Assembly: GCA_015493495.1 (NCBI GenBank)
Contig: WGDB01000146.1
Span: forward strand, 1-38,849
Origin: Helicobacteraceae bacterium
GTDB lineage: Bacteria; Campylobacterota; Campylobacteria; Campylobacterales; Sulfurimonadaceae
Direction of reading: 5' to 3'
Length of the DNA stretch: 38,849 bases
The translations under genes were made by a program, and so were the position numbers. Of the stretch, positions 8,301 through 27,585 are shown piece by piece (position 1 is the first letter of the stretch; every line of letters begins with the position of its first letter). The notes beneath the pieces are model-generated. The model was not told the origin of the DNA. It saw nothing but the letters and a program-made list of their open reading frames with translations, and did not search any database.

Positions 8301-8525
8301 CTACTACCCTCTCTTCTAGAGGAGGAAAGGCAATGGCATTAATTTAAGAGTTAAAAATACGGTGTTAATTTTTTTATAAAATAGTTTCAGCTGTTACGTT
8401 ATAGAAATGTTGTGTTTGGGTGGATACATTAGGTTGAAATGTACTAAATAGTACTAAACATCAATGTTTTGCGAAATTAAACATAGTAAGTATTTAGGAT
8501 AATTCCCAAGAATAGGGATTTGAAA
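8301..8525. other. Intergenic region left of the element
   Basis: No gene was seen here. A weak hairpin CCTCT/AGAGG follows the perR stop and may help termination. The stretch at 8449-8466 (TAGTACTAAACATCAATG) recurs at 27723-27740 with one mismatch, see findings. Confidence 0.5.
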
Positions 8526-8570
8526 TGGTGTCAAGAGGGGGACTTGAACCCCCGACCCCCGGCTTATGAG
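8526..8570 (-). repeat. attL: 45-bp tRNA 3' fragment
   Basis: This is identical over 45 nt to 24530-24574. It covers the CCA end, T arm, variable region and anticodon stem/loop up to the CAT anticodon of the tRNA at the other end, then identity stops (CTCGTT here against ACCAGT there). It is the displaced original 3' end of the tRNA gene and is not a working tRNA. Confidence 0.9.
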
Positions 8571-8715: not shown

Positions 8716-10011
8716 TTAAACTCCAAAGTGTAATTCGCGATGGCAGTTTGGACATACAGCAATGGCATTATCTACGTTATCTTTTCCACCGTCAGCTAAT
8801 CTAATTTGATGATGTACTTCAAGATAGGGTGTATTGTCTTTGGCTCTAATAAATGGTGCATCACACCCACATTTCTCACATACACCATTAGCTCGTTCTA
8901 AGACTTCAACAATTACATCTGCATTACGTTTGAACCCTCTTGAGACTATTTGAACTTCAGAAGCATATTCACTTGCTTGTTCAAGACGTTTTCGTCTGCC
9001 TTGACTCATCAGCTTAGATTCTACAATGTTCTTCTCAAGTTCTGCATTGATATCATCCAAGAAAACTGGACTTTCAATCACATCTAGCTCATAAACTTCA
9101 GACCAACCACCTGCTTGAGACCTCGTGGCTTTAAGTGGTGTGCCATCACTCACCTTTACTAACATACTCACAGAAAATGGAAGGGCAAGCTTTCTTAGAT
9201 TTCTGATTGAAATTAAATTTACACATTCTTTGGTTTTAGTGTCATCACTATATTTGTATATCTCTTTTTCACCTGGCTGAAACTCTAAGATATGCTTGTT
9301 TAACACTTGAACTCTATTGGGATCAGAAACAAAGAGTTCACGCTTATCTTCCCACCCAATGATCTCTCCTATGTATTGAACAGTACCCAAGTTCGTAGTA
9401 GTTGAGATATAAAAGGTAATTGGATTGTCTGGAGTAGGTTCTTGCTCTTTTAAGTACACCGTTGTTCCACTGCTGTATGGCTGAATATAGGAGGTGATAT
9501 TTGGGTTAATCTCTTGGGCAGTAATAATCTCTGTTAAAACTGTCTCATAGACCCCATTCTCAAAGAAAGCATTATTTGATAACGGTTCAATGGTACTATT
9601 CTCGTTGTCCAAAATATATTTTAATAGTTCGCTCTTAATGGTTTGTTTTCCTAGTGGAATAGCATTGAGACCATTTTGTAAAAGGTGTGTTGAATCAAGT
9701 AAATCATTGTCTATAAATTGAATAAGTTTGAGTCTAAAATAATTATCGGCAGTAAAGCTATCAGATAAAATGTATTCCTCATCATTTGCTAATAACTCAT
9801 CTTCACCAATATCACTTTTGATTACAATGGTTTTGATAGCTATTTTTTGGATGGGCTTAGAAATGTAGATGTAGACAATATCTCCAATATTTATTCGATT
9901 GTTACTAGGGTTAGTCCAGTCTACCTCTCCCAACTCTTTAAAAGCATCTATAGCATTGAATTGTGAAGGATTACTACTTATTAACCAATTGGTAATTTCT
10001 GCTTTGCTCAT
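8716..10011 (-). CDS. HNH endonuclease with EVE/PUA-like N-terminal domain
   Basis: The C-terminal 60 residues form an HNH nuclease with a zinc ribbon: C378/C381, catalytic region EVHH at about 398-401, a DNA (Asp-Asn-Ala) stretch and CPNCH at 420-424. The N-terminus (WLISSNPSQF... GDIVYIYISKP) resembles an EVE/PUA-like domain that reads modified bases. This pairing suggests a modification-dependent (type IV-like) restriction nuclease. The ATG at 10011 (431 residues) is preferred, with AAGG about 8 nt upstream; a longer in-frame extension to 10092 is unlikely. It sits next to the integrase at the left end of the element. EVE assignment is by eye and less sure than HNH. Confidence 0.75.
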   Translation of the reverse strand: MSKAEITNWLISSNPSQFNAIDAFKELGEVDWTNPSNNRINIGDIVYIYISKPIQKIAIKTIVIKSDIGEDELLANDEEYILSDSFTADNYFRLKLIQFIDNDLLDSTHLLQNGLNAIPLGKQTIKSELLKYILDNENSTIEPLSNNAFFENGVYETVLTEIITAQEINPNITSYIQPYSSGTTVYLKEQEPTPDNPITFYISTTTNLGTVQYIGEIIGWEDKRELFVSDPNRVQVLNKHILEFQPGEKEIYKYSDDTKTKECVNLISIRNLRKLALPFSVSMLVKVSDGTPLKATRSQAGGWSEVYELDVIESPVFLDDINAELEKNIVESKLMSQGRRKRLEQASEYASEVQIVSRGFKRNADVIVEVLERANGVCEKCGCDAPFIRAKDNTPYLEVHHQIRLADGGKDNVDNAIAVCPNCHRELHFGV

Positions 10012-10124
10012 GATCAAACCTTTGTTTAGTATGCGGTAAGAATAATAAAAAAAAGTGTGGAAATAATGTGAGTACAAAATGTAATAAAACATCTTGTACT
10101 AATAGGAAAGAAAGGGGCTTAGAA

Positions 10125-11333
10125 CTATGCAAACAGCTTATCAACACGCTCATCACGTTTGTTCTCATTTACGTTTGAGTGCTTGATGTAATAATCCATA
10201 GTTGTACTCAATTTTTTGTGTGTGAGTTGTTTTTGGATATATGGCAAACTGACTCCCATCTCAAGCATATTACTGGCGAATGAATGTCTAGTCGCATACA
10301 ATGTTCGATACTCGATGTTTAACTTTTTTAAAAGTGGCTTGAAGTAGGCATCTACAATAGCCTTGGGCTGATAAAATGGCTTCAGAGTGTTTGGATTAGG
10401 AAAGATCCACTCTTGACTCTTAGACGTGCTCTTTAGAGCTAATAACTCTTGCTTTACAGGTTCAGGCATGTCTATCACATTGATCGTACCAGTCTTGGTA
10501 CTATTTCTTAACTTACCATGACGTATGCTTCTTTGCAGAGTGATTTTATACTCTTCGAAATCTATATCAGAATACTTAAGGGCTATCGATTCGCCAGTTC
10601 TAATACCGCAATAAAACAGCGTAGTAAGATAAGGTTTTAACCAACCATCAGCTGCTCCTAATATAGCCTTGACTTCTTCCGATGAGTAGTAGTCATGCTC
10701 AGGTTTATCGCGAGTCACAAATCGTTTGGATCGCCTGTCTACCAAGTCCATTAGATTTTTGCTCAAATACTCATTCATGTAGGCAAACTTGAAAATCATG
10801 TTCATGACACGATGGTACTTTTTATATCGTGAAAAACTCATAGGGTGTTTAGTCAATAGCTTTTTCTTCCACTCTTTGAGATCAGAGACCTTGATATCAT
10901 CTAAAAGCATCTCGTCAAAGTCTTCCGCAATATGTTTCTTGTAGATGTTTTCGTAGTCTAGTTGTATGTCAGCCATTCGGTTGTCACTCTCTTCTTGTAT
11001 AGCATCCCACGCAATATCTTTGAAGTAAACATTGCCATCGGTTAGGTCATTATTCTCAAGAAAGTGGTTGAATGCAATAGCGAATTTATCTCGCTCAATT
11101 TGTTGCATCAACCGTTTAGTATAAGGCTTCCCTAGACTAAATCTAGCACGATCTTTACCCTGTGTTCTATATGTTGGATAGAGTCGGTAATCAATATAAA
11201 GGATGTTCTTGTCGTTTGAATAGACTCTAACACTCTTTATAATTTCATTTAGCTCAATGGCACTATTTACTTGGATAACGTTCTTGGATTTACGTTTATG
11301 GGGTATATCCGTTTTGGGTTGTGTTACTCTCAT
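10125..11333 (-). CDS. int: Tyrosine recombinase (integrase)
   Basis: This site-specific recombinase is the likely enzyme for integration into and excision from the tRNA gene. The catalytic C-terminal domain shows Arg 245 (CGIRTGES), a Lys-containing beta-hairpin near 280, YATRH with Arg 349, His 372 (QLTHKKLS) and the nucleophile Tyr at 381/382 (TTMDYYIKH). The first box histidine is replaced by Tyr 346, which is seen in some phage integrases. The middle (about 110-205) is a SAM-like core-binding domain. An AAGGAG site precedes the ATG at 11333. The length of 402 residues is normal. It lies about 1.6 kb from attL, as usual for tRNA-targeting integrases. Confidence 0.93.
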   Translation of the reverse strand: MRVTQPKTDIPHKRKSKNVIQVNSAIELNEIIKSVRVYSNDKNILYIDYRLYPTYRTQGKDRARFSLGKPYTKRLMQQIERDKFAIAFNHFLENNDLTDGNVYFKDIAWDAIQEESDNRMADIQLDYENIYKKHIAEDFDEMLLDDIKVSDLKEWKKKLLTKHPMSFSRYKKYHRVMNMIFKFAYMNEYLSKNLMDLVDRRSKRFVTRDKPEHDYYSSEEVKAILGAADGWLKPYLTTLFYCGIRTGESIALKYSDIDFEEYKITLQRSIRHGKLRNSTKTGTINVIDMPEPVKQELLALKSTSKSQEWIFPNPNTLKPFYQPKAIVDAYFKPLLKKLNIEYRTLYATRHSFASNMLEMGVSLPYIQKQLTHKKLSTTMDYYIKHSNVNENKRDERVDKLFA

Positions 11334-11480: not shown

Positions 11481-12206
11481 TCAATCCATAAACATGGTCA
11501 CTGGATTGCTCAAACCTCTATTGACAAGAAGATCGATCCAGTCCTTAAAATTGTTATCGCTCTCATAGTGCATGCGTTTGAGCATGTAGCGTATAAGAGC
11601 TCGATTGCTTGTACTGTTAAAGATAACATTGGAAACAAAGGGAACACGCTTAGCATTTTTGAGACTGTTGACCGTAACAGTGACCTTTGTATATGCAAAC
11701 CTGTTCACAATGTGATCATACTTTGGAACATCACTGTTAAAAGGGTGTACTCCCTGGATAAGTGCTCTGCAAAAGTGTCTCACACAGTCAGCTTGGGAAC
11801 TACCTCTATTTCGTACATTTTGCTTTGACCTGTTGGCATAATAATTGACAAGCTCAGGTGTAGCTCTTATCCCCTTCTTCTTTCGTAAAGTATTCATCAC
11901 CGCTCGATGTGCTTTAAACTCATCCATGGTCTTAAACGGTCGTGTAGACCCATCACTTAACACTTCACGTTTAAAGTCATAATCAAGACCGTACTTCTTT
12001 TCCTCAGTCATCATCACAATGTCATTAGTGTCACTGTCATCATCGAGAACATCTAAGATGGTGCTAAGTCTTATTTGATCATAAGTCTTTATCTCAGTAT
12101 CGTGACAGTGCTCTAATAATGTACGAGCCTGTTCATCTCTAGAACCATCAAGCCTATGACCGACTTTTGCCAATAAGGGGTAGATAATCTTTGTATTAGT
12201 TTTCAC
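11481..12206 (-). CDS. Family B DNA polymerase (piPolB-like), C-terminal part
   Basis: This frame continues the polymerase past the KTRG motif: about 241 residues starting KTNTKIIYPLLAKVGHRLD, with a thumb-like stretch KKYGLDYDFKREV and a long C-terminal region without other recognised motifs. It overlaps the middle frame by 11 nt and is shifted +1 to it. A GTG at 12206 with GGAG 6 nt upstream is a plausible start; TTG at 12218 is also in frame. Skipping the T of the middle frame's TAA stop (AAC-T-AAT) would join the two frames. It could be a separate subunit made by coupled re-initiation, the product of +1 frameshifting, or a piece of a damaged gene. Confidence 0.7.
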   Translation of the reverse strand: MKTNTKIIYPLLAKVGHRLDGSRDEQARTLLEHCHDTEIKTYDQIRLSTILDVLDDDSDTNDIVMMTEEKKYGLDYDFKREVLSDGSTRPFKTMDEFKAHRAVMNTLRKKKGIRATPELVNYYANRSKQNVRNRGSSQADCVRHFCRALIQGVHPFNSDVPKYDHIVNRFAYTKVTVTVNSLKNAKRVPFVSNVIFNSTSNRALIRYMLKRMHYESDNNFKDWIDLLVNRGLSNPVTMFMD

Positions 12207-13062
12207 TGTAAGCTCCAATCTGACCTCTAGTCTTTATGTTATAGACACTGTTGACAGCATGCTTTATCTCAATAAACTCATCTTCATCCCAAGCTTTACG
12301 AGCATTTTTGAGTAGAACTAAAGCAGGAAATTCTAGAAGCTTTTGATAAAGTATGGGATCAACGTCTTCAAACTTCTTAAAGATTTTATCGCCACTCTCC
12401 AATGCTTTATAAATATCATCGTGAAATGTATCTTGTAAACAGTCATGAAAGGCTGGATCGTTTTTACTGCTGGTTTTATAGAGCACACCGTCTGTAGTGG
12501 CTGAGATCGTCAAATAATCATGCCCTTGAGTGTTTAACTCATCCATAGCGACTAAAAGAGAAGCAAGTGAAGCTCTTAGCCCACCTGTGATCATAGTTGC
12601 AAAGTAAGCTTGAGATACAGCAGAAAAGCCACTTGTAAAAGCTCCAGTTTGACGAAGATCGAAACCACTTTTAGGATTGATGCCTTGTCCAGTCTTGCCA
12701 TATAAAGTATTTGCAACAAGCTTGTATAGACCGTCTCGGAGTTTATCCTTATCTATCTTTGCTTGATTACGTTTGTCAATAAGATGTTTCATGGCATCTC
12801 TAAAAATAAAACCATCTAAACTCTCTACTACGAAAGCCTCGATATATTTTATTTCTGCACCCTGTCTAATCGCTAGATTGATTTCTGGGATCGTTGAGAC
12901 AGTCCTACCTTCAAGTGGTTGGACTAAACCATACTTGGCATCACGTACACTGAGAGAAGGGTGTAAAGTGTCATCAGGAAAGCTAAACTCTATGTCCGCA
13001 AAACCTACCACCAATTTACTACCATCAAAGTCTGCAACAGCTTTTTTAATTTTATCAATCAT
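12196..13062 (-). CDS. Family B DNA polymerase (piPolB-like), palm/fingers part with motifs B and C
   Basis: This 288-residue frame carries polymerase motif B (K114-LVANTLYG), motif C as TTDG (189-192) in place of the usual DTDS, and KTRG (277-280). In family B enzymes a KxY motif normally sits there; TTDG with KTRG is the pattern I recall for primer-independent PolB. Between the start and motif B lies a region of TPR2-like length. The ATG at 13062 overlaps the stop of the exonuclease frame by 8 nt and has AGGA 7 nt upstream; a TTG at 13068 is also possible. The frame is +1 relative to its upstream neighbour. Without the other two pieces it would lack motif A and the proofreading domain. Confidence 0.8.
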   Translation of the reverse strand: MIDKIKKAVADFDGSKLVVGFADIEFSFPDDTLHPSLSVRDAKYGLVQPLEGRTVSTIPEINLAIRQGAEIKYIEAFVVESLDGFIFRDAMKHLIDKRNQAKIDKDKLRDGLYKLVANTLYGKTGQGINPKSGFDLRQTGAFTSGFSAVSQAYFATMITGGLRASLASLLVAMDELNTQGHDYLTISATTDGVLYKTSSKNDPAFHDCLQDTFHDDIYKALESGDKIFKKFEDVDPILYQKLLEFPALVLLKNARKAWDEDEFIEIKHAVNSVYNIKTRGQIGAYSEN

Positions 13063-14125
13063 CACCAAGTCCTAGACTATAGTTGTTCTTCTTGAGTACC
13101 TTATATTCAATCACTTCAGGTGCAGTCCCAAAGTCTGCAATAGGCAGCATTCCCATAACACTTGGATAAGCTGAAGAGAAGTCTATATCCAAGATAAGCT
13201 CACCTTTGACCTCACCAACAACATAAGAGTTGTTAAGACCGCCAAGGTAAGCTCTTTGTGCAAGGTTCAAACCTTTTTGATAGATGCTGTTGTCTTGTGT
13301 AAATTGGGACTCAAATGTACCTTCTGGAAAGTGCTTGAGTATATACTTCTTGTATATTTTCACAGTGGCACTTCCAATAGTTGTAAAACGTATGTTAGTG
13401 GAACCGTTAATAGTGTTTAAGATGTACTGCAGTTTGATAAAAAGCATCAGAGTGATAACAGCATCATGAACGGCATACTCTTCAAAACGATCAGGATCAC
13501 ACTTTAGTAGTGTCAGCATGTCTTCTTTCTCAGCAACTGTCAATGGCTTCTTGTGGTACTTCTCATCTAGCAGAGAACTCGCCTTCTCTAACGTACGGTG
13601 TGAAAGTGGAAGCAATAGCATCGTGTCGCCAAGAATAAGTTTGATGTTTATAACCTTTTCACTTTTGAGCTTAAAGGGAAAACGTATAGATCTATATGTG
13701 AGGAGAGTGTTGTATGCAAAATCGAAATATTTTGATATTTGTTTGCGGTTAGAGAACATTGAGAATTCCGCTGCGCAGAAGTGACAGACTAAAGTTATAC
13801 GATATTCCACAATCTCAGCGTCCAAAACACCTGCAAGATCATAGATCGTTTGAAAAACATCGTTACTGCTTAAGCGTTTATCGTCATCTATATAAGTGAT
13901 CTTGGTCTCATACGTACCTGTCTTTGTATTATAGACTGCGAACTGAAAACTCAGACAGAGATTATTATATTCATCGATACGAGTGTACTCAGTATCGACG
14001 GCTGCAATGATCTCTGGGTCTTTCTTCTTCTCTTTCTTCTTCTTGTCTTTGCTCAGATGCTCAGAGGGCGTTCCCTCCGAGTCTGAAATCTCTCCATTGG
14101 GAAAGATCCCAACGTAGTCGATCAT
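13055..14125 (-). CDS. Family B DNA polymerase (piPolB-like), exonuclease domain and motif A
   Basis: This 356-residue frame has the 3'-5' exonuclease motifs Exo I (D44-T-E46), an Exo II-like stretch (HFCAAEFSMF) and Exo III (YAVHD), then polymerase motif A DFSSAYPS with catalytic Asp 315. A lysine-rich charged segment lies at 26-36. It stops (TGA) 41 residues after the motif A aspartate, where other family B polymerases run straight on. Its ATG overlaps the stop of the upstream gene (ATGA). Skipping the T of GAT-T-GAT at the stop would fuse it to the next frame. The three pieces add up to about 885 residues, a plausible size for piPolB. Confidence 0.85.
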   Translation of the reverse strand: MIDYVGIFPNGEISDSEGTPSEHLSKDKKKKEKKKDPEIIAAVDTEYTRIDEYNNLCLSFQFAVYNTKTGTYETKITYIDDDKRLSSNDVFQTIYDLAGVLDAEIVEYRITLVCHFCAAEFSMFSNRKQISKYFDFAYNTLLTYRSIRFPFKLKSEKVINIKLILGDTMLLLPLSHRTLEKASSLLDEKYHKKPLTVAEKEDMLTLLKCDPDRFEEYAVHDAVITLMLFIKLQYILNTINGSTNIRFTTIGSATVKIYKKYILKHFPEGTFESQFTQDNSIYQKGLNLAQRAYLGGLNNSYVVGEVKGELILDIDFSSAYPSVMGMLPIADFGTAPEVIEYKVLKKNNYSLGLGDD

Positions 14126-14598
14126 GAGGCTTTCTCAAGTCCCATATCGAAGTTTTCTTCATTACCAGCAACTTTTTCAGTTTCAAGAACTTCTAGAGTG
14201 TTCTTTGTTACCAATAAGTATGCGTCAAAGAGAGTTTTTTTAATACGATGTTGATGACTGTACTTCCAAGTCGTATCCGCTCCATATGTATGGGTATAAA
14301 TCTTAATGATGACATATGCATTTTCTACAGAATAGTGTAGAGCTTTCCCGTCTTTAGCATCTCTACCTGCGTCGGCATTCCCTTGTTGTGTATTGCGCAA
14401 AGGGAACTGAGTTGGCTTATCCCCACGTTCTGACCTAATGGCATCAAACTTGATTACTTTGGATTCAAGTAACCAGTCGGCTATCCCATCCTCGTTTGTC
14501 AATACTAGAAAATTGGTTTGTTCAAACCGGTTTTTACCAGCTTCAATAATGGATTGTGTTTTTATAGTGCTTTCTGCACTTTTTGTTAGAGTAGACAT
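14122..14598 (-). CDS. Hypothetical protein, first gene of the polymerase operon
   Basis: I do not recognise this 158-residue protein. It is soluble, with no membrane segment or signal peptide, an asparagine/aspartate-rich middle (RNTQQGNADAGRDAKDG) and an acidic C-terminus. AAGGAG lies just before the ATG at 14598, which is a better start than the in-frame ATG at 14628. Its stop overlaps the polymerase start by 4 nt, so translation is coupled. A role as a replication accessory factor such as a DNA-binding protein is suggested only by position. Confidence 0.7.
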   Translation of the reverse strand: MSTLTKSAESTIKTQSIIEAGKNRFEQTNFLVLTNEDGIADWLLESKVIKFDAIRSERGDKPTQFPLRNTQQGNADAGRDAKDGKALHYSVENAYVIIKIYTHTYGADTTWKYSHQHRIKKTLFDAYLLVTKNTLEVLETEKVAGNEENFDMGLEKAS

Positions 14599-14662
14599 TA
14601 TGTCTCCTTCTCTTGATAATAGAAACATCTATATAGTTGTTTCTACAGTTGTTTGACGAGAG

Positions 14663-16474: not shown

Positions 16475-16801
16475 ATGTATTTATTGGAAGATATTGAAAA
16501 TGAATTATCGGGGCTAAAACCCGAGACATTCCCAAAGCGATATAGTTTTCATAAGTATTGGGGAAAAAGACCAGCAAATATATTTAGTGAATTAATAGAT
16601 TTTTTTTCTAATGAAGATGAAAAAATCCTTGATCCATTTAATGGTAGTGGGATAACAATAACTGAAGCTATTATAAAAGATAGACAAGGCTATGGATTTG
16701 ACCTAAACCCTATTGCAGTTGATTTAACAAGGGCTACAATAGAGCATACAAGAGTTAAAGACTTTTTGCAACGTTCAAATGATTTAGTTAGTCGTTCATA
16801 G
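16475..16801 (+). pseudogene. Truncated DNA methyltransferase (N-terminal part)
   Basis: The 108 residues match the start of a DNA amino-methyltransferase: a KYWGKRPANIF motif, SAM motif I as ILDPFNGSGITI and an acidic GFDLNPIA after strand 2. The catalytic (D/N/S)PP(Y/F) motif and the target-recognition domain are missing, and the protein stops shortly after. A working enzyme would be about 250-450 residues. This looks like a leftover of a restriction-modification gene cut off when the neighbouring operon was acquired. Confidence 0.7.
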
Positions 16802-17087: not shown

Positions 17088-18749
17088 ATGGTAATAATTT
17101 TTATCCGAGATGGAAAGACCCCTAAACAATATAGAAAACAAAATAGAATAGAATTAAAACCTGACGTACCTTGGGATCATTCGAGATATAAGCCGTGGGA
17201 TGACCATGGTTATAAAACTGCATTTTCTGCCGTATTATATTTTAAAGAGAAAGAATATGAGTTACCTCTAATAAAAATTTTACTTGAGAATCAAACAGAT
17301 ACCCATAAGTATTTGAAAGGGTATTTAGAAGAATTAGGGTCTCGTTCCTTTGAGTTTCCTATTGAGAATATTAAATATGTTTCTTTGCCGACTGATACCG
17401 AATTTTATCAAGTGCTAAAATCGTTATTAACGAAAAATGAGGTTGAACAAGTAATAGAAGAACTATATGACGCGAGTTATATTAAACATACCGATGCTCA
17501 TAAAGAGAATAAGTTTTTATTAGAGACAGAAGGTTTTAATAGTTCATTACTCCGTGACATGACCGCTAGGAGTTCTTTTGAAAATGGATGGTTGATGCTA
17601 GAGGAAAGAACTATTTCTAAAAATGAAATGTTTAAACTCCAATTTCAATTAGATAGTTTTTCAAACCAACACAAAATAGATATAAATTTTAAAAAAAGTA
17701 TTTTTCCGAGTAATATCAATATATTAATTGGAGCGAATGGAACAGGAAAGTCACAAACATTGAATGTATTTATGAGACAGTTATTAGGGATTGATCCTCC
17801 TAACACGTCAAGTAAGCTACCTGTTTTTAATAAAATAGTATTAATAGCTTATAGCCCATTCGAAAATTATTTAACGTCATTAAATGAGCAGAAAATTAGA
17901 GTAAAAAGTCAATATAAATACTTTGGGTTTAGAACGGAACAAGATACATATAAAAAAGAACAACCTGCAATTGATACAGTTGAGGGTCTTTTTAAAATCA
18001 TAGAAGAAGATGATGAAAAAGACTTCCTGGAAAACAGAATCAATAAACTAGATGCACTGATGAAAATTTTAAAAAAGGCCATTGTATTTGACAATATCGG
18101 ATTAAAACTAGATGGTGACAGTAGCTCAATATTTCAGGCTAATAATGAAATAGTCGATGATGTTTACATTATAAATGATGCAGCAGAATTTTTATTAGTC
18201 AGCGAAAGTTTAAAAAAAGTAGTTGATAGTGAGAAAGGTATTGTATTCACAAAGAATGATATGAAAATTCACCTTAGTTCGGGACAGCAAATTTTCTCAC
18301 ATTTGATTACGTGCGCGGTTAGTGCTATACGCCAAGACACTATGTTATTAATAGATGAACCTGAAATATATTTACACCCAAATTTAGAAGTTGAATTGAT
18401 GAACTTACTTAAAGAGATGCTGGAAGAGTTTAATTCTTACGCAATCATTGCAACACATTCATTGATACTAACACGGGAAGTTTCAAAAGACTATACTGTA
18501 ATATTTAAGCAAAAAGAAGAGAACATTAACTGCATGAACCCTCCATTTGAAACATTTGGAGGTGATATTGAAAAAATAAACTCCTACGTTTTCTTTGACA
18601 AAGATATTGACAAACCTTATGAATCATGGCTTCAAGACCTAGTAGACTTAGAAAACGGCTCTAAAAATGCAATAAAAAAATATATGAATGAATTAAATGA
18701 AGAAAGTCTGATTTTAATGAACGGTATGAGTGTGAGAAATGCCAAATAA
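17088..18749 (+). CDS. AAA/ABC-type ATPase, Septu PtuA-like
   Basis: This 553-residue ATPase belongs to the RecF/OLD/ABC-like group used by anti-phage systems. It has Walker A GANGTGKS (215-222), a signature HLSSGQQ near 394-400, Walker B LLIDEP (420-425) and an IIATHS H-loop near 455. The first 200 residues are not recognised. GGAG lies 8 nt before the ATG. It overlaps the following HNH gene by 11 nt. An ATPase plus HNH pair is the layout of Septu (PtuA/PtuB), in which the ATPase controls a nuclease that attacks nucleic acid on infection. Confidence 0.8.
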   Translation: MVIIFIRDGKTPKQYRKQNRIELKPDVPWDHSRYKPWDDHGYKTAFSAVLYFKEKEYELPLIKILLENQTDTHKYLKGYLEELGSRSFEFPIENIKYVSLPTDTEFYQVLKSLLTKNEVEQVIEELYDASYIKHTDAHKENKFLLETEGFNSSLLRDMTARSSFENGWLMLEERTISKNEMFKLQFQLDSFSNQHKIDINFKKSIFPSNINILIGANGTGKSQTLNVFMRQLLGIDPPNTSSKLPVFNKIVLIAYSPFENYLTSLNEQKIRVKSQYKYFGFRTEQDTYKKEQPAIDTVEGLFKIIEEDDEKDFLENRINKLDALMKILKKAIVFDNIGLKLDGDSSSIFQANNEIVDDVYIINDAAEFLLVSESLKKVVDSEKGIVFTKNDMKIHLSSGQQIFSHLITCAVSAIRQDTMLLIDEPEIYLHPNLEVELMNLLKEMLEEFNSYAIIATHSLILTREVSKDYTVIFKQKEENINCMNPPFETFGGDIEKINSYVFFDKDIDKPYESWLQDLVDLENGSKNAIKKYMNELNEESLILMNGMSVRNAK

Positions 18750-19590
18750 ACTACTTATACCTGAAATAAAAGATATCGATTTAATAGATGATATTGTTTC
18801 AGAACGAACAAGAAATCCTAACAAAGCATTTTTTAACGGATATGAAGCTGATTGGAAAAAACGAGTAAATGAGTACACAGATAAGTGTGGTAACCCTGAA
18901 AAAATAAATGTTTCTACAATACAGGAAGAGGATAAATCACGTTTTATTAATTTATATACTGCTCCAACAGGTATTGTGAGAAAAGATATTATAGATGTCT
19001 TACGAGATCATTCATTAGCTATGTGCCCTTTCTGTAGTGAAGCAGGTAGACCAACTACTTTAGATCACTTTTTACCCAAAGATACATACCCTGAATATAG
19101 CTTGTTGTCAGCTAACCTTGTTCCCGCTTGCGATGCGTGTCAAGGAGTAAATGCAAAAGGCGCTAAAGCATTAGATGCGGAAGGTAGACGCTTGTTTTTA
19201 CACCCATATTATGACATTCCAGAGGGTGCTGAAATTATTATATTAACAATAAAAGCTCCATACGATAAGGGCTCAAGCTTTAATTTAAGCGTAAATGATG
19301 AGCTTGATACTGATTTAAAAGAATTATGCGTAAGACACATTAAAGAGTTGAACATTGAGGGGCGCTTTAGGCGATGGTTTAAATCAGAATATCTACGGTT
19401 GAAAAAACTAGTATTATCCTTATTGGAAGAAGATGACGATCCTGATATGGTTTTAATGGCAATTAGACTTTTTTATCGCAAAAATAAACTTATGGGTGTA
19501 AACTACTGGGATACGGTTTTTTATAAAGCAGTATTATCTAATAGCGATCTATTAGAATTTTTGAAAGACAAAGAAAATTTAAGGATATAA
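18739..19590 (+). CDS. HNH endonuclease, Septu PtuB-like
   Basis: The HNH core is CPFC (96-99), LDHFLPK with the catalytic histidine about 14 residues later, and CDAC (131-134), a Cys4 zinc-stabilised HNH fold. The 283-residue length fits PtuB. Its ATG overlaps the end of the ATPase gene, so the two are translated together and probably form a complex. The C-terminal half is helical and charged with no motif I can name. Confidence 0.82.
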   Translation: MPNKLLIPEIKDIDLIDDIVSERTRNPNKAFFNGYEADWKKRVNEYTDKCGNPEKINVSTIQEEDKSRFINLYTAPTGIVRKDIIDVLRDHSLAMCPFCSEAGRPTTLDHFLPKDTYPEYSLLSANLVPACDACQGVNAKGAKALDAEGRRLFLHPYYDIPEGAEIIILTIKAPYDKGSSFNLSVNDELDTDLKELCVRHIKELNIEGRFRRWFKSEYLRLKKLVLSLLEEDDDPDMVLMAIRLFYRKNKLMGVNYWDTVFYKAVLSNSDLLEFLKDKENLRI

Positions 19591-20487
19591 ATGTCTAAAA
19601 TAATACGATTTGAATATTTACGCTTAACCATTGTGGATAAGAAGACTGATAAGTCAATTTCTTTTAAAGAAATAGTTAGTGCTCTAGAAAGTAAGCCATT
19701 AGATATTTCAAAAAAAGATCATCGATATCAATGTAAAGAAGGAGTTTGTAGCAGAGCTTTCTCTCATATTGATAATGTTGACAATGGTGTTTTAGTGAGT
19801 TTTGCTCGTTACGATAAACAGGAGCTTACAGGAAGCTTTTTAAAAAATGGTGATTTAGAATATAGTATTACAGAGAAAGTCAAGGCTGCAACAAAACGAG
19901 ATGACATCGCTTTAAAAGAATATAATCGTGTGAAAGTATTTTGTAACGGTATAGTCATTTTTCAAAAAAACAGAAAAGCAAATTCAGCATTGCAATTACG
20001 CGAATATTTGAATTATCACTTTAAAAATCTATATACTATTGAACTTGTACCGGTTTACATGGATGACTTATTTGAAGCTCTAGATAGTGGTGAAATACAA
20101 AATATGACGTTATCTGTTGGATTTGCGCCAGAAGGATCTTTTGATGTATTTGAGAGTGAAAACTATACTGGTGCTGCTACATGTGAACTTAAGTTTAACG
20201 CGGATAAAGAGCATTTTCTAAAGAAAAGTTTCTTTGTTGGAGCCCTCACCAAAAAAGCTTTACAGCAATTTGGTGTACTTGATAAAGGAATAATAACGGG
20301 GGCGACTGCTAAGTTATCTAATAGGCGAGCTAGAGTTTCATTAGAGGAATATCAATTAAGCGATCAACGCTCTTTCGCTGATATAAGCCCATATTTAATG
20401 ACGCCAAATAAATATTTTGATGAGATGTATACAAAACATAAAGAGTTTCTTGATACATATATTAAAAGAGATGGTAGGTATGACTAA
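19591..20487 (+). CDS. Unknown third gene of the Septu-like operon
   Basis: This 298-residue protein begins at the base after the HNH stop, with AAGGA 5 nt before the ATG. I recognise no domain. It is soluble, with mixed alpha/beta character, a basic patch (KVKAATKRDDIALKEYNR) and a C-terminal segment rich in Asp and Tyr. The one-base stop/start overlap with the membrane gene behind it shows coupled translation. It could be a sensor, an adaptor or a second effector; the sequence does not say which. Confidence 0.7.
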   Translation: MSKIIRFEYLRLTIVDKKTDKSISFKEIVSALESKPLDISKKDHRYQCKEGVCSRAFSHIDNVDNGVLVSFARYDKQELTGSFLKNGDLEYSITEKVKAATKRDDIALKEYNRVKVFCNGIVIFQKNRKANSALQLREYLNYHFKNLYTIELVPVYMDDLFEALDSGEIQNMTLSVGFAPEGSFDVFESENYTGAATCELKFNADKEHFLKKSFFVGALTKKALQQFGVLDKGIITGATAKLSNRRARVSLEEYQLSDQRSFADISPYLMTPNKYFDEMYTKHKEFLDTYIKRDGRYD

Positions 20488-20888
20488 TGGATAACGTGAT
20501 TTTATCAATTATAAAAGAACTATTAGCGATTAGCATTGGATTTGTAGGATTGATTTTTACAGCTTTTAGTATTCTAATGACACTATCTGATGAGCATTGG
20601 AAAATTAAGAAATTAATGCAATCGGAAGAGTATAAACTATTTATCAATTCTTTGTTTAGTTTAGGTGTTTGGTTTTTAGTGTTTTTTTTATTCTCAATAA
20701 TGATTCTAATAGTAGAACCACTGTTAAAGTTAAATTATTCCGCATTTGCAGAGTACAGTTTGTATTTGTATATTTTCGCGCTAGTCTTATTGTCAATAAA
20801 AACAATGTTTATATTAAATAAGTTTAAAAAAATAGTAATATTATTCGCAGATCGTAGTAAGCCTATGCTAGGGGAATTCGATAAATAA
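20487..20888 (+). CDS. Small membrane protein, fourth gene of the Septu-like operon
   Basis: The 133-residue protein has three predicted membrane helices at about 8-30, 52-75 and 87-108, with a basic cytoplasmic-looking tail. Its ATG shares an A with the previous stop (TAATG). No family is recognised. A membrane protein at the end of a nuclease operon could be an effector that permeabilises the membrane or an anchor for the complex; both are inference. Confidence 0.7.
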   Translation: MDNVILSIIKELLAISIGFVGLIFTAFSILMTLSDEHWKIKKLMQSEEYKLFINSLFSLGVWFLVFFLFSIMILIVEPLLKLNYSAFAEYSLYLYIFALVLLSIKTMFILNKFKKIVILFADRSKPMLGEFDK

Positions 20889-24303: not shown

Positions 24304-24529
24304 GGTTAGAATATGTGTTTATAAACAGTGGAAAGATACATATACAGAAGAGGGGAGAGTAGAAAGAAAAATCTGTAAATAGTCACTAAAAGAGATGTGA
24401 GACAAGAGTGGGTCAAAAGAGGGACAAAAATTAATAGAGGGCCAGGAAGTTATGCGTGAAAATTGGTATGATAAAATATATTGAAAGTGATGTTAAAGTA
24501 CGTATTTTGGGGAAACTCTTTAAAGTATA
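24304..24529. other. Right end of the element, non-coding
   Basis: No gene was found in this 226-nt stretch between the DUF2958 operon and attR. It probably holds the operon promoter and recombinase arm sites, but no clear repeat was seen. Confidence 0.4.
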
Positions 24530-24574
24530 TGGTGTCAAGAGGGGGACTTGAACCCCCGACCCCCGGCTTATGAG
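24530..24574 (-). repeat. attR: 45-bp repeat forming the 3' half of the tRNA
   Basis: Identical to 8526-8570. This copy restores the 3' part of the tRNA, from the CAT anticodon to CCA, so integration keeps the tRNA functional. Confidence 0.9.
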
Positions 24575-24606
24575 ACCAGTGCTCTAACCAGCTGAGCTAC
24601 CGTGAC
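24530..24606 (-). tRNA. tRNA with CAT anticodon (elongator Met, or Ile2 if modified)
   Basis: A 77-nt cloverleaf reads on the minus strand: acceptor GTCACGG with TCTTGAC (one mismatch and one G-U), D arm GCTC/GAGC, anticodon stem CTGGT/GCCGG around loop CTCATAA (anticodon CAT), T arm GGGGG/CCCCC with loop TTCAAGT, and an encoded CCA. It lacks the initiator-type CGCGGGG start, so it is not initiator tRNA. Met or lysidine-modified Ile cannot be told apart here. It is the integration site of the element. Confidence 0.88.
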
Positions 24607-24759: not shown

Positions 24760-27585
24760 TCAGTAATTGGTATCAGCCGTGATACCGGCAGTACCATTTT
24801 GTCCATTACTACCCAAAGAGAGTCCGCCGCGTCCGGCTTGACCACCGGAACCTTTCCCCAGGAGGGTGTTGTTTTGTGTATAGTCGGGATCAACACTGTT
24901 ATTGTGAATGTAGACACCATAGGAGACACCGCCGCAGCCGCCACCGCCGCCACCACCGTGACCACCGTTACCGCCAGCGCCTCCAGCACCACCATTTCCA
25001 CTCAGACCACTGCTGTCGGCAAGGCCCGATTGACCACCTGCAGCACCTTGACCGCCATGACCACCAAACCCGCCATTGCCACCGTTACCGCCATCACCGT
25101 TTTTGATGGTGTTTCCAAGAAGGGTTGGAAAACTGCTTGAGCTTGTTGAAAAAGTGATGAACACAGCAAATGAACCGCCACCGCTCCCTCCGGCGTTACC
25201 GCCCATACCGGCACGTCCGCCGCCGCCGCCACCACCACCGGAGCCACCAAGAATATCTGTAGTACCACAACCGTCATTGTCATCAATACCGCCGCCAGCT
25301 CCACCGCCGCCACCGCCATTTCCATCTGTACCGTTTTGACCATTCGTACCACTTGCAAGGCTCCATTCTCCGTTGCTCACACTGCCGCCGGGTGACAGGC
25401 AACCGGTGCCTCCGGCTCCGGATGACCCATCTGCGCCATCTGTCCCATCAATGGCATCTCGTTCATAGCCACCTGTCGCATAAGTAGTACAGTCACTATT
25501 AGTCTGAATGTCATATCCACCGATACCACCACTACCTGGAGTTGCTCCTGTACCATTTGCACCGGGAGGCTGCTGGTCGTTGTTGTTTGGACATTGTACT
25601 GCACCACCGTTGCCTCCAGCTATTCCATCACCACCGTCACCGGCTGTTCCCTGATTACCTGGTGTTGCTGCGGAGTTTATACATTCTGCATGATTTGCTG
25701 TCCCGGAATTAAAAGCATCTTGTCCATCAACACCAGAAGTACCATCCATACCATCAGGACCATCACTGCCTGGACTCCCTGCAGCTGCATTACCTCCACT
25801 TATCTGGTTGGATACTAAAGTAAAATGACTGTCACTGTCATTGATCCAAAGTGCATACGTACTTCCTAGAGACTGGTCGGTACCATTGATACTAAAACCT
25901 TCAATGCGTGTCTGTTGTGTGATGCTGTCTGCGATCATAGTTTTGTTTTGTGATGGGTCACCGGTGATAGAGGTTGTCTGTCTTTCTATCTCTCTTTGCC
26001 AGGTCAGCGGGTCATATCCACCAAGTAGATCGATGCTGTTATGGATGGTGACCTGTTCTCTGTAGTTACCGGCTGCCACCAGGACTTTATCACGTCCTGT
26101 TGAGATCGCTTGTGCGATACCCTGGGTAACAGTGAGACAAGGGTAGTCACTGCCTCCTGTTATATAAGGACTTAGACCACAACTGCCATCATCTATGGAA
26201 TGTGCGTCACTGCCCGAGACATAGATCGCTGTCGGATCGATAGCGGGTGACACGGTCACATGGACAAGAGCCAGATTGGAAAGGTGGCCTTGCAGGTCGC
26301 CAACGATATAGCTGATAGTTGCATTGCCGACAAAGTTGGATGCCGGGATGAAGGTCATTACTCCCTGGCTGTTCACACTCCATACATTGGAGTCACTGTC
26401 GACCAATGTGTTTTGAACACCTGCAGCTGCAAGGTTAAGGTCGACACTTGCTGTGTCAAGGTCTGTATCGATGTCATTTGTGAGGATATTGAAACTGACT
26501 GCCTGATCGACAGAGGTTGTAGCATTGTCTTCGACAGCTACTGGTGCATTGGGGTCAGGCAAGTCAAGTGTTGTAACATTGTTCTGGACATAAGAGGAGT
26601 TGTTGTCAGCTGCGTCAAAAGCATTGAGCTTATAGACATAAGTCGTCTCAGCGTCAAGAGCGGTGTCGTCATAAGATGTCTCTTGCTGTGTTACCAGCAG
26701 CTGTGTCGGTGAACACCCGCTCCCTTTACATCGGTATAAACGGTATCCCTGAACACCGACAGCATCATATGACGCTTTCCATGCAAGATGTGTTGTTGAT
26801 GAAGATACTGCTGTTATGTTCAGTTGTGATGGTGCTGTCGGAGCTGTACTATCAGTGGTTGAAGCTATACTGAAGAAGATAAGATAATCATCATCGTTTA
26901 TGACTCCTGCAGTATCTTTACATCGCACATAGTATATATAAGTCTTACCATTTTCAAGTGCTCTTATGTGTTGTGAATGTTCCTGGGCACCTGTCGATGA
27001 AAAGGTCTCTGTCATCACATCATAGTTTTGTTCAGGGAGTGTCGCATAACGACAAGTGGCATTTTTGTCTGTATGAAGTCCTATGGTCACTTCGGTTGTT
27101 CCTTCAACGATGACGGCGTTAGGAGATGCATCAGAGCGAACGGCAGGCACACCTGAGCTACACGGTGTCGTTGTCGTGTTGTCATCTTTCGAGGCATAAC
27201 TGAAGAAGATAAGGTAATCATCATTGTTTGTGACTCCTGCAGCATCTTTACATCGTACATAGTATATATAAGTCTTACCACTTTCAAGTGCACTTAGGTG
27301 TTGTGAATGTTCCTGGGCACCTGTCGATGAAAAGGTCTCTGTCATCACATCATAGTTTTGTTCCGGGAGTGTCGCATAACGACAAGTGGCATTTTTGTCT
27401 GTATGCAGTCCTATGGTCACTTCGGTTGTTCCTTCAGCGACGACGGCGTTAGGAGATGCATCTGAGCGAAGTGTAGGCAGATCTGAGCTGCACTGTGTCA
27501 CTGTAGTGTTGTCATCTTGCGAGCTACAGCCAGACAAGAGTACTAATGCTAGCGTGATTGTGAAGATATAAATAATATTTTTCAT
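24760..27585 (-). CDS. Large glycine-rich surface lipoprotein with repeats, FN3, Ig-like and beta-helix-like regions
   Basis: The 941-residue protein starts with a lipoprotein signal (lipobox LLSGC, Cys 20). Two nearly identical 110-residue units follow (about 26-245). Next come an FN3-like domain (about 250-345, with YRLYRCKGSGC), a VCBS/Ig-like domain (about 352-455, VSFNILTNDID... and ATISYIVGD), a DUF1565/pectate-lyase-like beta-helix part (about 460-600), and a long region of Gly-rich, collagen-like runs (GGAGGNGGHGGGGGGG) to the end. It is probably anchored in the outer membrane as an adhesin or extracellular-matrix protein. The plus strand of the Gly-rich part shows long spurious reading frames. 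Confidence 0.8.
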   Translation of the reverse strand: MKNIIYIFTITLALVLLSGCSSQDDNTTVTQCSSDLPTLRSDASPNAVVAEGTTEVTIGLHTDKNATCRYATLPEQNYDVMTETFSSTGAQEHSQHLSALESGKTYIYYVRCKDAAGVTNNDDYLIFFSYASKDDNTTTTPCSSGVPAVRSDASPNAVIVEGTTEVTIGLHTDKNATCRYATLPEQNYDVMTETFSSTGAQEHSQHIRALENGKTYIYYVRCKDTAGVINDDDYLIFFSIASTTDSTAPTAPSQLNITAVSSSTTHLAWKASYDAVGVQGYRLYRCKGSGCSPTQLLVTQQETSYDDTALDAETTYVYKLNAFDAADNNSSYVQNNVTTLDLPDPNAPVAVEDNATTSVDQAVSFNILTNDIDTDLDTASVDLNLAAAGVQNTLVDSDSNVWSVNSQGVMTFIPASNFVGNATISYIVGDLQGHLSNLALVHVTVSPAIDPTAIYVSGSDAHSIDDGSCGLSPYITGGSDYPCLTVTQGIAQAISTGRDKVLVAAGNYREQVTIHNSIDLLGGYDPLTWQREIERQTTSITGDPSQNKTMIADSITQQTRIEGFSINGTDQSLGSTYALWINDSDSHFTLVSNQISGGNAAAGSPGSDGPDGMDGTSGVDGQDAFNSGTANHAECINSAATPGNQGTAGDGGDGIAGGNGGAVQCPNNNDQQPPGANGTGATPGSGGIGGYDIQTNSDCTTYATGGYERDAIDGTDGADGSSGAGGTGCLSPGGSVSNGEWSLASGTNGQNGTDGNGGGGGGAGGGIDDNDGCGTTDILGGSGGGGGGGGRAGMGGNAGGSGGGSFAVFITFSTSSSSFPTLLGNTIKNGDGGNGGNGGFGGHGGQGAAGGQSGLADSSGLSGNGGAGGAGGNGGHGGGGGGGCGGVSYGVYIHNNSVDPDYTQNNTLLGKGSGGQAGRGGLSLGSNGQNGTAGITADTNY
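26870..27535. repeat. 330-bp tandem duplication inside the lipoprotein gene
   Basis: Two adjacent copies with a 330-bp period (landmarks CATCGCACATAGTATATATA at 26921 and CATCGTACATAGTATATATA at 27251) encode the two 110-residue units. They differ at only a few scattered bases, mostly near the outer edges, which suggests a recent duplication or gene conversion. Confidence 0.85.

What the first reader, a model, noticed from the sequence alone, without database searches (positions are those of the whole stretch)
11481..14125. Polymerase encoded in three overlapping frames with two +1 junctions
Exonuclease plus motif A, motifs B/C plus KTRG, and the C-terminal part sit in three frames. Both junctions are +1, both sit at a stop where skipping one T restores the frame (GAT-T-GAT and AAC-T-AAT), and both also have a ribosome site (AGGA, GGAG) for re-initiation. 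Two independent junctions of the same kind argue against simple decay, as does the lack of any other stop. The polymerase may be a three-subunit enzyme or made by recoding.
Basis: partly seen in the sequence, partly recalled or inferred. Interest (0 to 1): 0.85.

Follow-up and report, generated by a model that had tools for sequence, protein, structure and literature searches.

The report
Pipolin DNA polymerase split into three
A bacterial mobile element encodes its own DNA-copying enzyme as three overlapping genes instead of one; the first cut is shared by related elements in other bacteria and puts the two halves of the active site on different proteins, so this looks like a true multi-part enzyme and not a broken or misread gene.

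Summary
A family-B DNA polymerase of the pipolin type (piPolB) lies in three frames at 14125-13055, 13062-12196 and 12206-11481 (minus strand). It sits in a 16.0-kb integrated element with 46-bp perfect att repeats at a tRNA-Met gene and a tyrosine recombinase. All exonuclease and polymerase motifs are intact.

Each junction has a Shine-Dalgarno 4-mer 6-7 nt before a start codon that overlaps the upstream stop. These are the only such sites in the gene that open a long ORF.

The deciding evidence is comparative. Three elements from two other families of the same order (G703 twice, G743) carry the same polymerase (37-46% identity by part) split at exactly junction 1, with a Shine-Dalgarno site and ATGA overlap. 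Their frame relation differs from the window's, so the split and re-start are conserved and the frame is not. That rejects recoding, sequencing error and decay for junction 1.

Junction 2 is found only here. No frameshift was seen in 29,332 aligned residues elsewhere in this assembly, but an error or recent mutation is not excluded.

Verdict: a two-subunit piPolB lineage, with this copy most likely three-subunit, made by coupled re-initiation. New variant of a known kind.

The parts
8525..8570 (-). attL: 46-bp copy of the 3' part of the tRNA-Met gene, left end of the element
   Evidence: perfect 46/46 direct repeat, spacing 16,004 bp
24529..24574 (-). attR: 46-bp repeat inside the intact tRNA-Met gene, right end of the element
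24530..24606 (-). tRNA-Met (CAT), integration target
   Evidence: ARAGORN and Rfam
13055..14125 (-). piPolB part 1 (356 aa, ATG): 3'-5' exonuclease and motif A (first catalytic Asp)
   Evidence: 37-38% identical over the part to separate N-subunits of G703 and G743
13070..13073 (-). Shine-Dalgarno AGGA of part 2, 7 nt before ATG 13062
   Evidence: equivalent site in all three split homologues
13055..13062 (-). junction 1: ATGATTGA, start of part 2 overlaps stop of part 1
   Evidence: same split position in L124, L129, L150
12196..13062 (-). piPolB part 2 (288 aa, ATG): rest of palm, fingers, motifs B and C, KTRG
   Evidence: Pfam DNA_pol_B_2 5.8e-8; 45% identical to the separate second subunit of G703
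12213..12216 (-). Shine-Dalgarno GGAG of part 3, 6 nt before GTG 12206
12196..12206 (-). junction 2: GTGAAAACTAA, start of part 3 overlaps stop of part 2
   Evidence: fused in all homologues examined
11481..12206 (-). piPolB part 3 (241 aa, GTG): C-terminal part (thumb and C-terminal region, inferred)
   Evidence: 37-38% identical to the C-terminal half of the G703/G743 second subunit
10125..11333 (-). tyrosine recombinase, about 47% identical to that next to the split polymerase in G703
   Evidence: Pfam 3.5e-20
14122..14628 (-). 168-aa protein, overlaps the start of part 1 by ATGA; a small gene is also coupled upstream of the G703 polymerases, not clearly homologous
8716..10092 (-). HNH endonuclease, like type IV restriction enzymes
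17088..18749 (+). defence cargo, PDC-M01A ATPase
   Evidence: PADLOC 2.4e-142
18739..19590 (+). defence cargo, PDC-M01B
   Evidence: PADLOC 6.7e-89

Best explanation
This is the replicative polymerase (piPolB) of an integrated pipolin, made as separate polypeptides from one mRNA. A ribosome ending part 1 re-starts at the overlapping ATG of part 2, and one ending part 2 re-starts at the overlapping GTG of part 3, each helped by its own Shine-Dalgarno site. The chains are inferred to assemble into one exonuclease/palm/fingers/thumb enzyme. The motif A aspartate is on chain 1 and the motif C aspartate on chain 2, so the active site forms only in the complex. The first split is ancestral to a clade of pipolins in at least three families of this host order; the second arose on the branch leading to this copy. 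Shown: the anatomy, the conserved split 1, the element boundaries. Inferred: coupled translation, assembly, activity, and that split 2 is real and functional.
For: (1) Split 1 is conserved in L124, L129 and L150 with separate N (345-358 aa) and second (528-541 aa) ORFs and the same gene order, N, second subunit, recombinase. (2) All four copies have GGAG, AGGA or GGAGG 7-8 nt before ATGAT at junction 1. (3) Overlap is 4 nt in three copies and 8 nt here, so the frame is not conserved but the re-start is. (4) The split forms are one clade with 100/100 support. (5) The G703 second subunits differ with dN 0.028 and dS 0.30, i.e. purifying selection after the split. (6) All catalytic motifs are intact. 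(7) Both junctions fall in gapped loops of the family; in the model of the intact relative L008 they map to 422/423 and 683/684, between secondary-structure elements. (8) Chance of the anatomy under random indels is about 1e-3 or less. (9) No frameshift in 29,332 aligned residues of this assembly. (10) The att repeats are identical, so there is no sign of an old decaying element. (11) Tajima test shows no acceleration of part 3.
Against: Split 2 is seen in this one copy only; all relatives, split or not, are fused there. No reads could be examined. No expression, assembly or activity evidence exists. If split 2 is recent, the relative-rate test could not detect loss of function. The element does hold at least one remnant gene (methyltransferase fragment 16475-16801), so some decay occurs in it.
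Confidence: 0.74

Rival explanations
1. The ancestral state is a functional two-subunit polymerase (split 1), and junction 2 is a recent frameshift mutation or an assembly error, so the present copy is either a two-subunit enzyme misread or a newly damaged one.
For: Junction 2 is fused in G703, G743 and all single-frame relatives; an AAAA run lies in the overlap; the element has a methyltransferase remnant.
Against: GGAG + GTG start exactly at the junction, 3-4% by chance in other genes and 0.1-0.3% in this one; 0 frameshifts in 29,332 aligned residues of this assembly; part 3 otherwise intact and not accelerated; 4 extra residues lie at the junction relative to G703/G743, more than a single-base slip would give.
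Confidence: 0.2
2. Programmed +1 frameshifting joins the three frames into one polymerase.
For: Skipping one T at GAT-T-GAT and AAC-T-AAT would restore the frame; both A-site codons are stops.
Against: In three homologues the same junction has a different frame relation with an ATGA overlap, so a +1 signal is not conserved. The P-site codons GAT and AAC re-pair poorly after a +1 slip (AUU, ACU). The Shine-Dalgarno 4-mers sit 6-7 nt before start codons, as for initiation, not next to the shift site as in prfB.
Confidence: 0.04
3. A pseudogene: both frames broken by ordinary decay.
For: Most relatives are single-frame; insertion-broken piPolBs occur elsewhere (L007, L009).
Against: Split 1 is conserved across families with purifying selection; no other stop; all catalytic residues kept; intact recombinase and perfect att repeats.
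Confidence: 0.05

Closest known systems
Pipolins and primer-independent family B DNA polymerase (piPolB)
   Same: PolB with exonuclease, motifs A/B/C and KTRG; tyrosine recombinase; tRNA att repeats; restriction and defence cargo; patchy distribution (PMC7385651)
   Different: Known piPolBs are described as one gene; here the polymerase is two conserved ORFs in the clade and three in this copy
Split gene 43 (43A/43B) of T4-like Aeromonas phages 25 and 44RR
   Same: A family B replicase encoded as separate polypeptides; for phage 25 the parts co-purify and have polymerase activity (PMC2988022)
   Different: There the split comes with an endonuclease gene or an untranslated insert between the parts; here the parts overlap by 8 and 11 nt with no insert, and there are three
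Split PolB3 of Methanobacteriales and Nanoarchaeum
   Same: Family B polymerase gene cut in two (PMC4104785)
   Different: Attributed to erratic intein excision or trans-splicing; no intein sequence is seen at these junctions and the polymerase is of another PolB branch
phi29-type protein-primed polymerases
   Same: Best solved-structure match of the L008 model
   Different: No terminal protein identified here; piPolB has KTRG and is primer-independent in the characterised members

Membership tests
piPolB | PolB exonuclease motifs and motifs A, B, C with catalytic residues | tested here: met
   all conserved in alignment with 16 relatives; Pfam DNA_pol_B_2
piPolB | KTRG motif in place of KxY (from general knowledge) | tested here: met
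   KTRG in window, G703, G743, L008, L007, L006
piPolB | homology to piPolBs of known pipolins or plasmids | tested here: met
   Staphylococcus plasmid polymerases matched, E 2e-4 for part 2 alone, 2e-19 joined; their piPolB status is from general knowledge
piPolB | primer-independent DNA synthesis | not testable with these tools
   biochemical property
piPolB | single polypeptide (usual, not strictly defining) | tested here: not met
   three ORFs here, two in G703 and G743
pipolin | piPolB gene between terminal direct repeats, often at a tRNA gene | tested here: met
   46-bp repeats 8525/24529 at tRNA-Met; definition PMC7385651
pipolin | tyrosine recombinase | tested here: met
   10125-11333
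programmed +1 frameshift gene | conserved frame relation and slippery site at the junction | tested here: not met
   overlap 4 nt in three homologues, 8 nt here
split (multi-subunit) polymerase | split position conserved with own start signals in independent copies | tested here: met
   junction 1 in four loci, three families; junction 2 seen in one copy only
split (multi-subunit) polymerase | parts assemble and are active | not testable with these tools
   needs co-purification and assay

The most novel reading that the evidence does not exclude
A three-subunit primer-independent DNA replicase whose two active-site metal ligands lie on different polypeptides, with splitting that proceeds stepwise (one to two to three chains) within one family of mobile elements and may serve to control replicase assembly by translational coupling.
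Probability: 0.45. Interest if true: 0.75.

Novelty: new variant of a known kind. Interest (0 to 1): 0.62.

Why it matters
A conserved cut between motif A and motif C means the polymerase active site must be built from two proteins. Gene splitting of family B polymerases is known from phages and archaea, but I found no report of it in pipolins in the literature held here. The clade gives single-chain, two-chain and apparently three-chain forms of one enzyme, a natural series for asking why replicases split and how they reassemble. Natural split points in a self-priming polymerase are also practical for split-enzyme designs in DNA amplification. Annotation pipelines and piPolB-based pipolin searches would miss or mislabel such elements as truncated.

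Tried and rejected
Recoding: rejected because the frame relation is not conserved. Assembly error for junction 1: rejected by three independent homologues. Phage or plasmid relatives of the close type: none in viral contigs or phages; plasmids gave only distant ones. Genome scans of kin found no close copy until a multi-sequence profile was used; a last search of 160 kin of G743 added none. The G370 match is a 167-residue C-terminal remnant cut by other sequence and a contig end, so it does not inform on splitting. PDB sequence searches found nothing; the fold search did. The AlphaFold model of L008 has modest confidence (mean pLDDT 62.8), so only loop positions were taken from it. A second structure job was not used: a joined window protein is not a letter-for-letter product of the DNA.

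Full report
OBSERVATION. The three ORFs exist as described. Part 1 (14125-13055, 356 aa) carries the three exonuclease motifs and motif A. Part 2 (13062-12196, 288 aa) carries motifs B and C (TTDG) and KTRG. Part 3 (12206-11481, 241 aa) is the C-terminal region. Junction 1 reads AGGACTTGGTG-ATGATTGA, so the ATG of part 2 lies 7 nt after AGGA and overlaps the TGA of part 1 by 8 nt. Junction 2 reads GGAGCTTACA-GTGAAAACTAA, so the GTG of part 3 lies 6 nt after GGAG and overlaps the TAA of part 2 by 11 nt. No other stop breaks the three parts.

WHAT THE ELEMENT IS. A 46-bp perfect direct repeat (8525-8570 and 24529-24574) duplicates the 3' part of a tRNA-Met gene (24530-24606) and delimits 16,004 bp. 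Chromosomal genes flank it (FUR and rubrerythrin on the left). Inside are an HNH nuclease like type IV restriction enzymes, a tyrosine recombinase, the polymerase, and a PDC-M01A/B candidate defence pair. Terminal repeats at a tRNA gene, a piPolB and tyrosine recombinases are what characterise pipolins (PMC7385651). PolB with KTRG and relatedness to Staphylococcus and Fusobacterium plasmid polymerases and to Rhodobacterales integrated copies make it a piPolB. The predicted structure of the intact relative L008 matches phi29 DNA polymerase best. Kinship of the host is known only as an unnamed order in the search tool.

CHANCE AND ERROR. Among 18 Shine-Dalgarno 4-mers in the gene, only those at the two junctions precede a start codon of a long ORF. 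Simulated one-base indels in 231 host genes and nine piPolB relatives give a start with a Shine-Dalgarno site near the new stop in 3-4% of cases, and 0.1-0.3% in this gene itself; both junctions together would be about 1e-3 or less. Comparing about 753 kb of this assembly (window included) with 800 kb of a complete genome of the same genus gave 0 frameshift-like breaks in 29,332 aligned residues, so a sporadic assembly error is unlikely, though raw reads were not available.

RELATIVES. Distant relatives (22-36% identity) are single-frame genes of about 875-1,101 aa, apart from two disrupted by inserted DNA (L007 by IS66, L009 near its contig end). A profile search of the host order then found the close ones. 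G703 carries two elements (L124, L129) and G743 one (L150), in two other families, each with a separate N ORF of 355, 345 or 358 aa and a second ORF of 528, 528 or 541 aa. Over the parts, identity to the window is 37-38% (part 1), 45-46% (part 2) and 37-38% (part 3). The second ORF begins exactly where part 2 begins (MI..F..LL..). The stop and start overlap by 4 nt (ATGA) in all three, with GGAG, AGGA or GGAGG 7-8 nt before the ATG. The order N subunit, second subunit, tyrosine recombinase is the same, and the window and G703 recombinases are about 47% identical. The split polymerases form a clade with 100/100 support, the window copy being sister to the other three, and the single-frame L008/L007 pair is their nearest neighbour in the tree (89/96). 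Between the two G703 second subunits dN is 0.028 and dS 0.30, i.e. strong purifying selection after the split.

INFERENCE ON JUNCTION 1. Position, start codon and Shine-Dalgarno site are conserved across families while the frame relation is not (4-nt overlap in three copies, 8-nt here). This is what separate, translationally coupled subunits predict and what programmed frameshifting, sequencing error or decay do not. The cut lies after motif A, in a highly variable loop of the family, at L008 residues 422/423 between a strand and a short helix. The two catalytic aspartates (motif A and motif C) are therefore on different chains.

INFERENCE ON JUNCTION 2. It is private to this copy; G703, G743 and the single-frame relatives are fused there, so by parsimony it arose on this branch. 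It too lies in a variable loop, after KTRG (L008 683/684, next to a low-confidence stretch 686-697), with four extra residues relative to G703/G743. Part 3 shows no excess change in Tajima tests (23 versus 21 and 20 versus 23 unique changes), while part 2 shows some excess with one outgroup (25 versus 8) and not with the other. The start signals make a working third ORF likely, but a recent mutation or a local error is not excluded; I give about 0.75 for a real third subunit and above 0.9 for the two-subunit split.

MECHANISM. Most likely one mRNA (upstream 168-aa gene, part 1, part 2, part 3) is read with termination-reinitiation at each overlap, and the parts assemble. That split family B polymerases can assemble and work is known for phage 25 gp43A/gp43B (PMC2988022), and split PolB genes occur in archaea (PMC4104785). 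Assembly and primer-independent activity here are inferred, not shown.

COMPARISON AND NOVELTY. It is a pipolin by the features tested. Multi-ORF piPolB was not reported in the passages searched of the pipolin papers held here (PMC7385651 speaks of truncated forms; a term search of PMC9710591 found nothing on split polymerase genes), but the main later pipolin survey is not in the library, so novelty is judged with that caveat. Filed as a new variant of a known kind.

Noticed in passing
window 17088-19590: PDC-M01A/B candidate anti-phage defence pair, followed by two uncharacterised genes (19591-20888), as pipolin cargo.
   Followed up: partly
window 16475-16801: Fragment of an N6/N4 DNA methyltransferase (profile positions 160-218 of 221 only): a remnant gene inside the element.
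   Followed up: partly
L007 1842-7386 (Pseudosulfitobacter plasmids): A piPolB of about 935 aa interrupted by an IS66 element, matched in 30 related plasmid records.
   Followed up: partly
L009 8800-8919: Tabrizicola piPolB, 94% identical to L010, loses its last ~140 residues to unrelated repetitive sequence at the contig end.
   Followed up: yes
L124 and L129 (G703): Two pipolins in one genome whose second subunits are 95% identical but N subunits only 64%, suggesting recombination or different selection on the exonuclease chain.
   Followed up: partly
L124, L129, L150, upstream of the N subunit: A conserved ~130-200 aa protein (38-50% identity) precedes the split polymerase in G703 and G743; the window has a 168-aa protein in the same place without clear similarity. 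Possibly an accessory replication protein.
   Followed up: partly
L141 / L147 (G370): A 167-residue piPolB C-terminal remnant of the same clade, 61% identical to G703, near a tRNA cluster with several tRNA-Met genes.
   Followed up: yes
window 26836-27465: 300-bp tandem duplication (90% identical) in a 941-aa Ig/fn3-domain protein next to the element.
   Followed up: no
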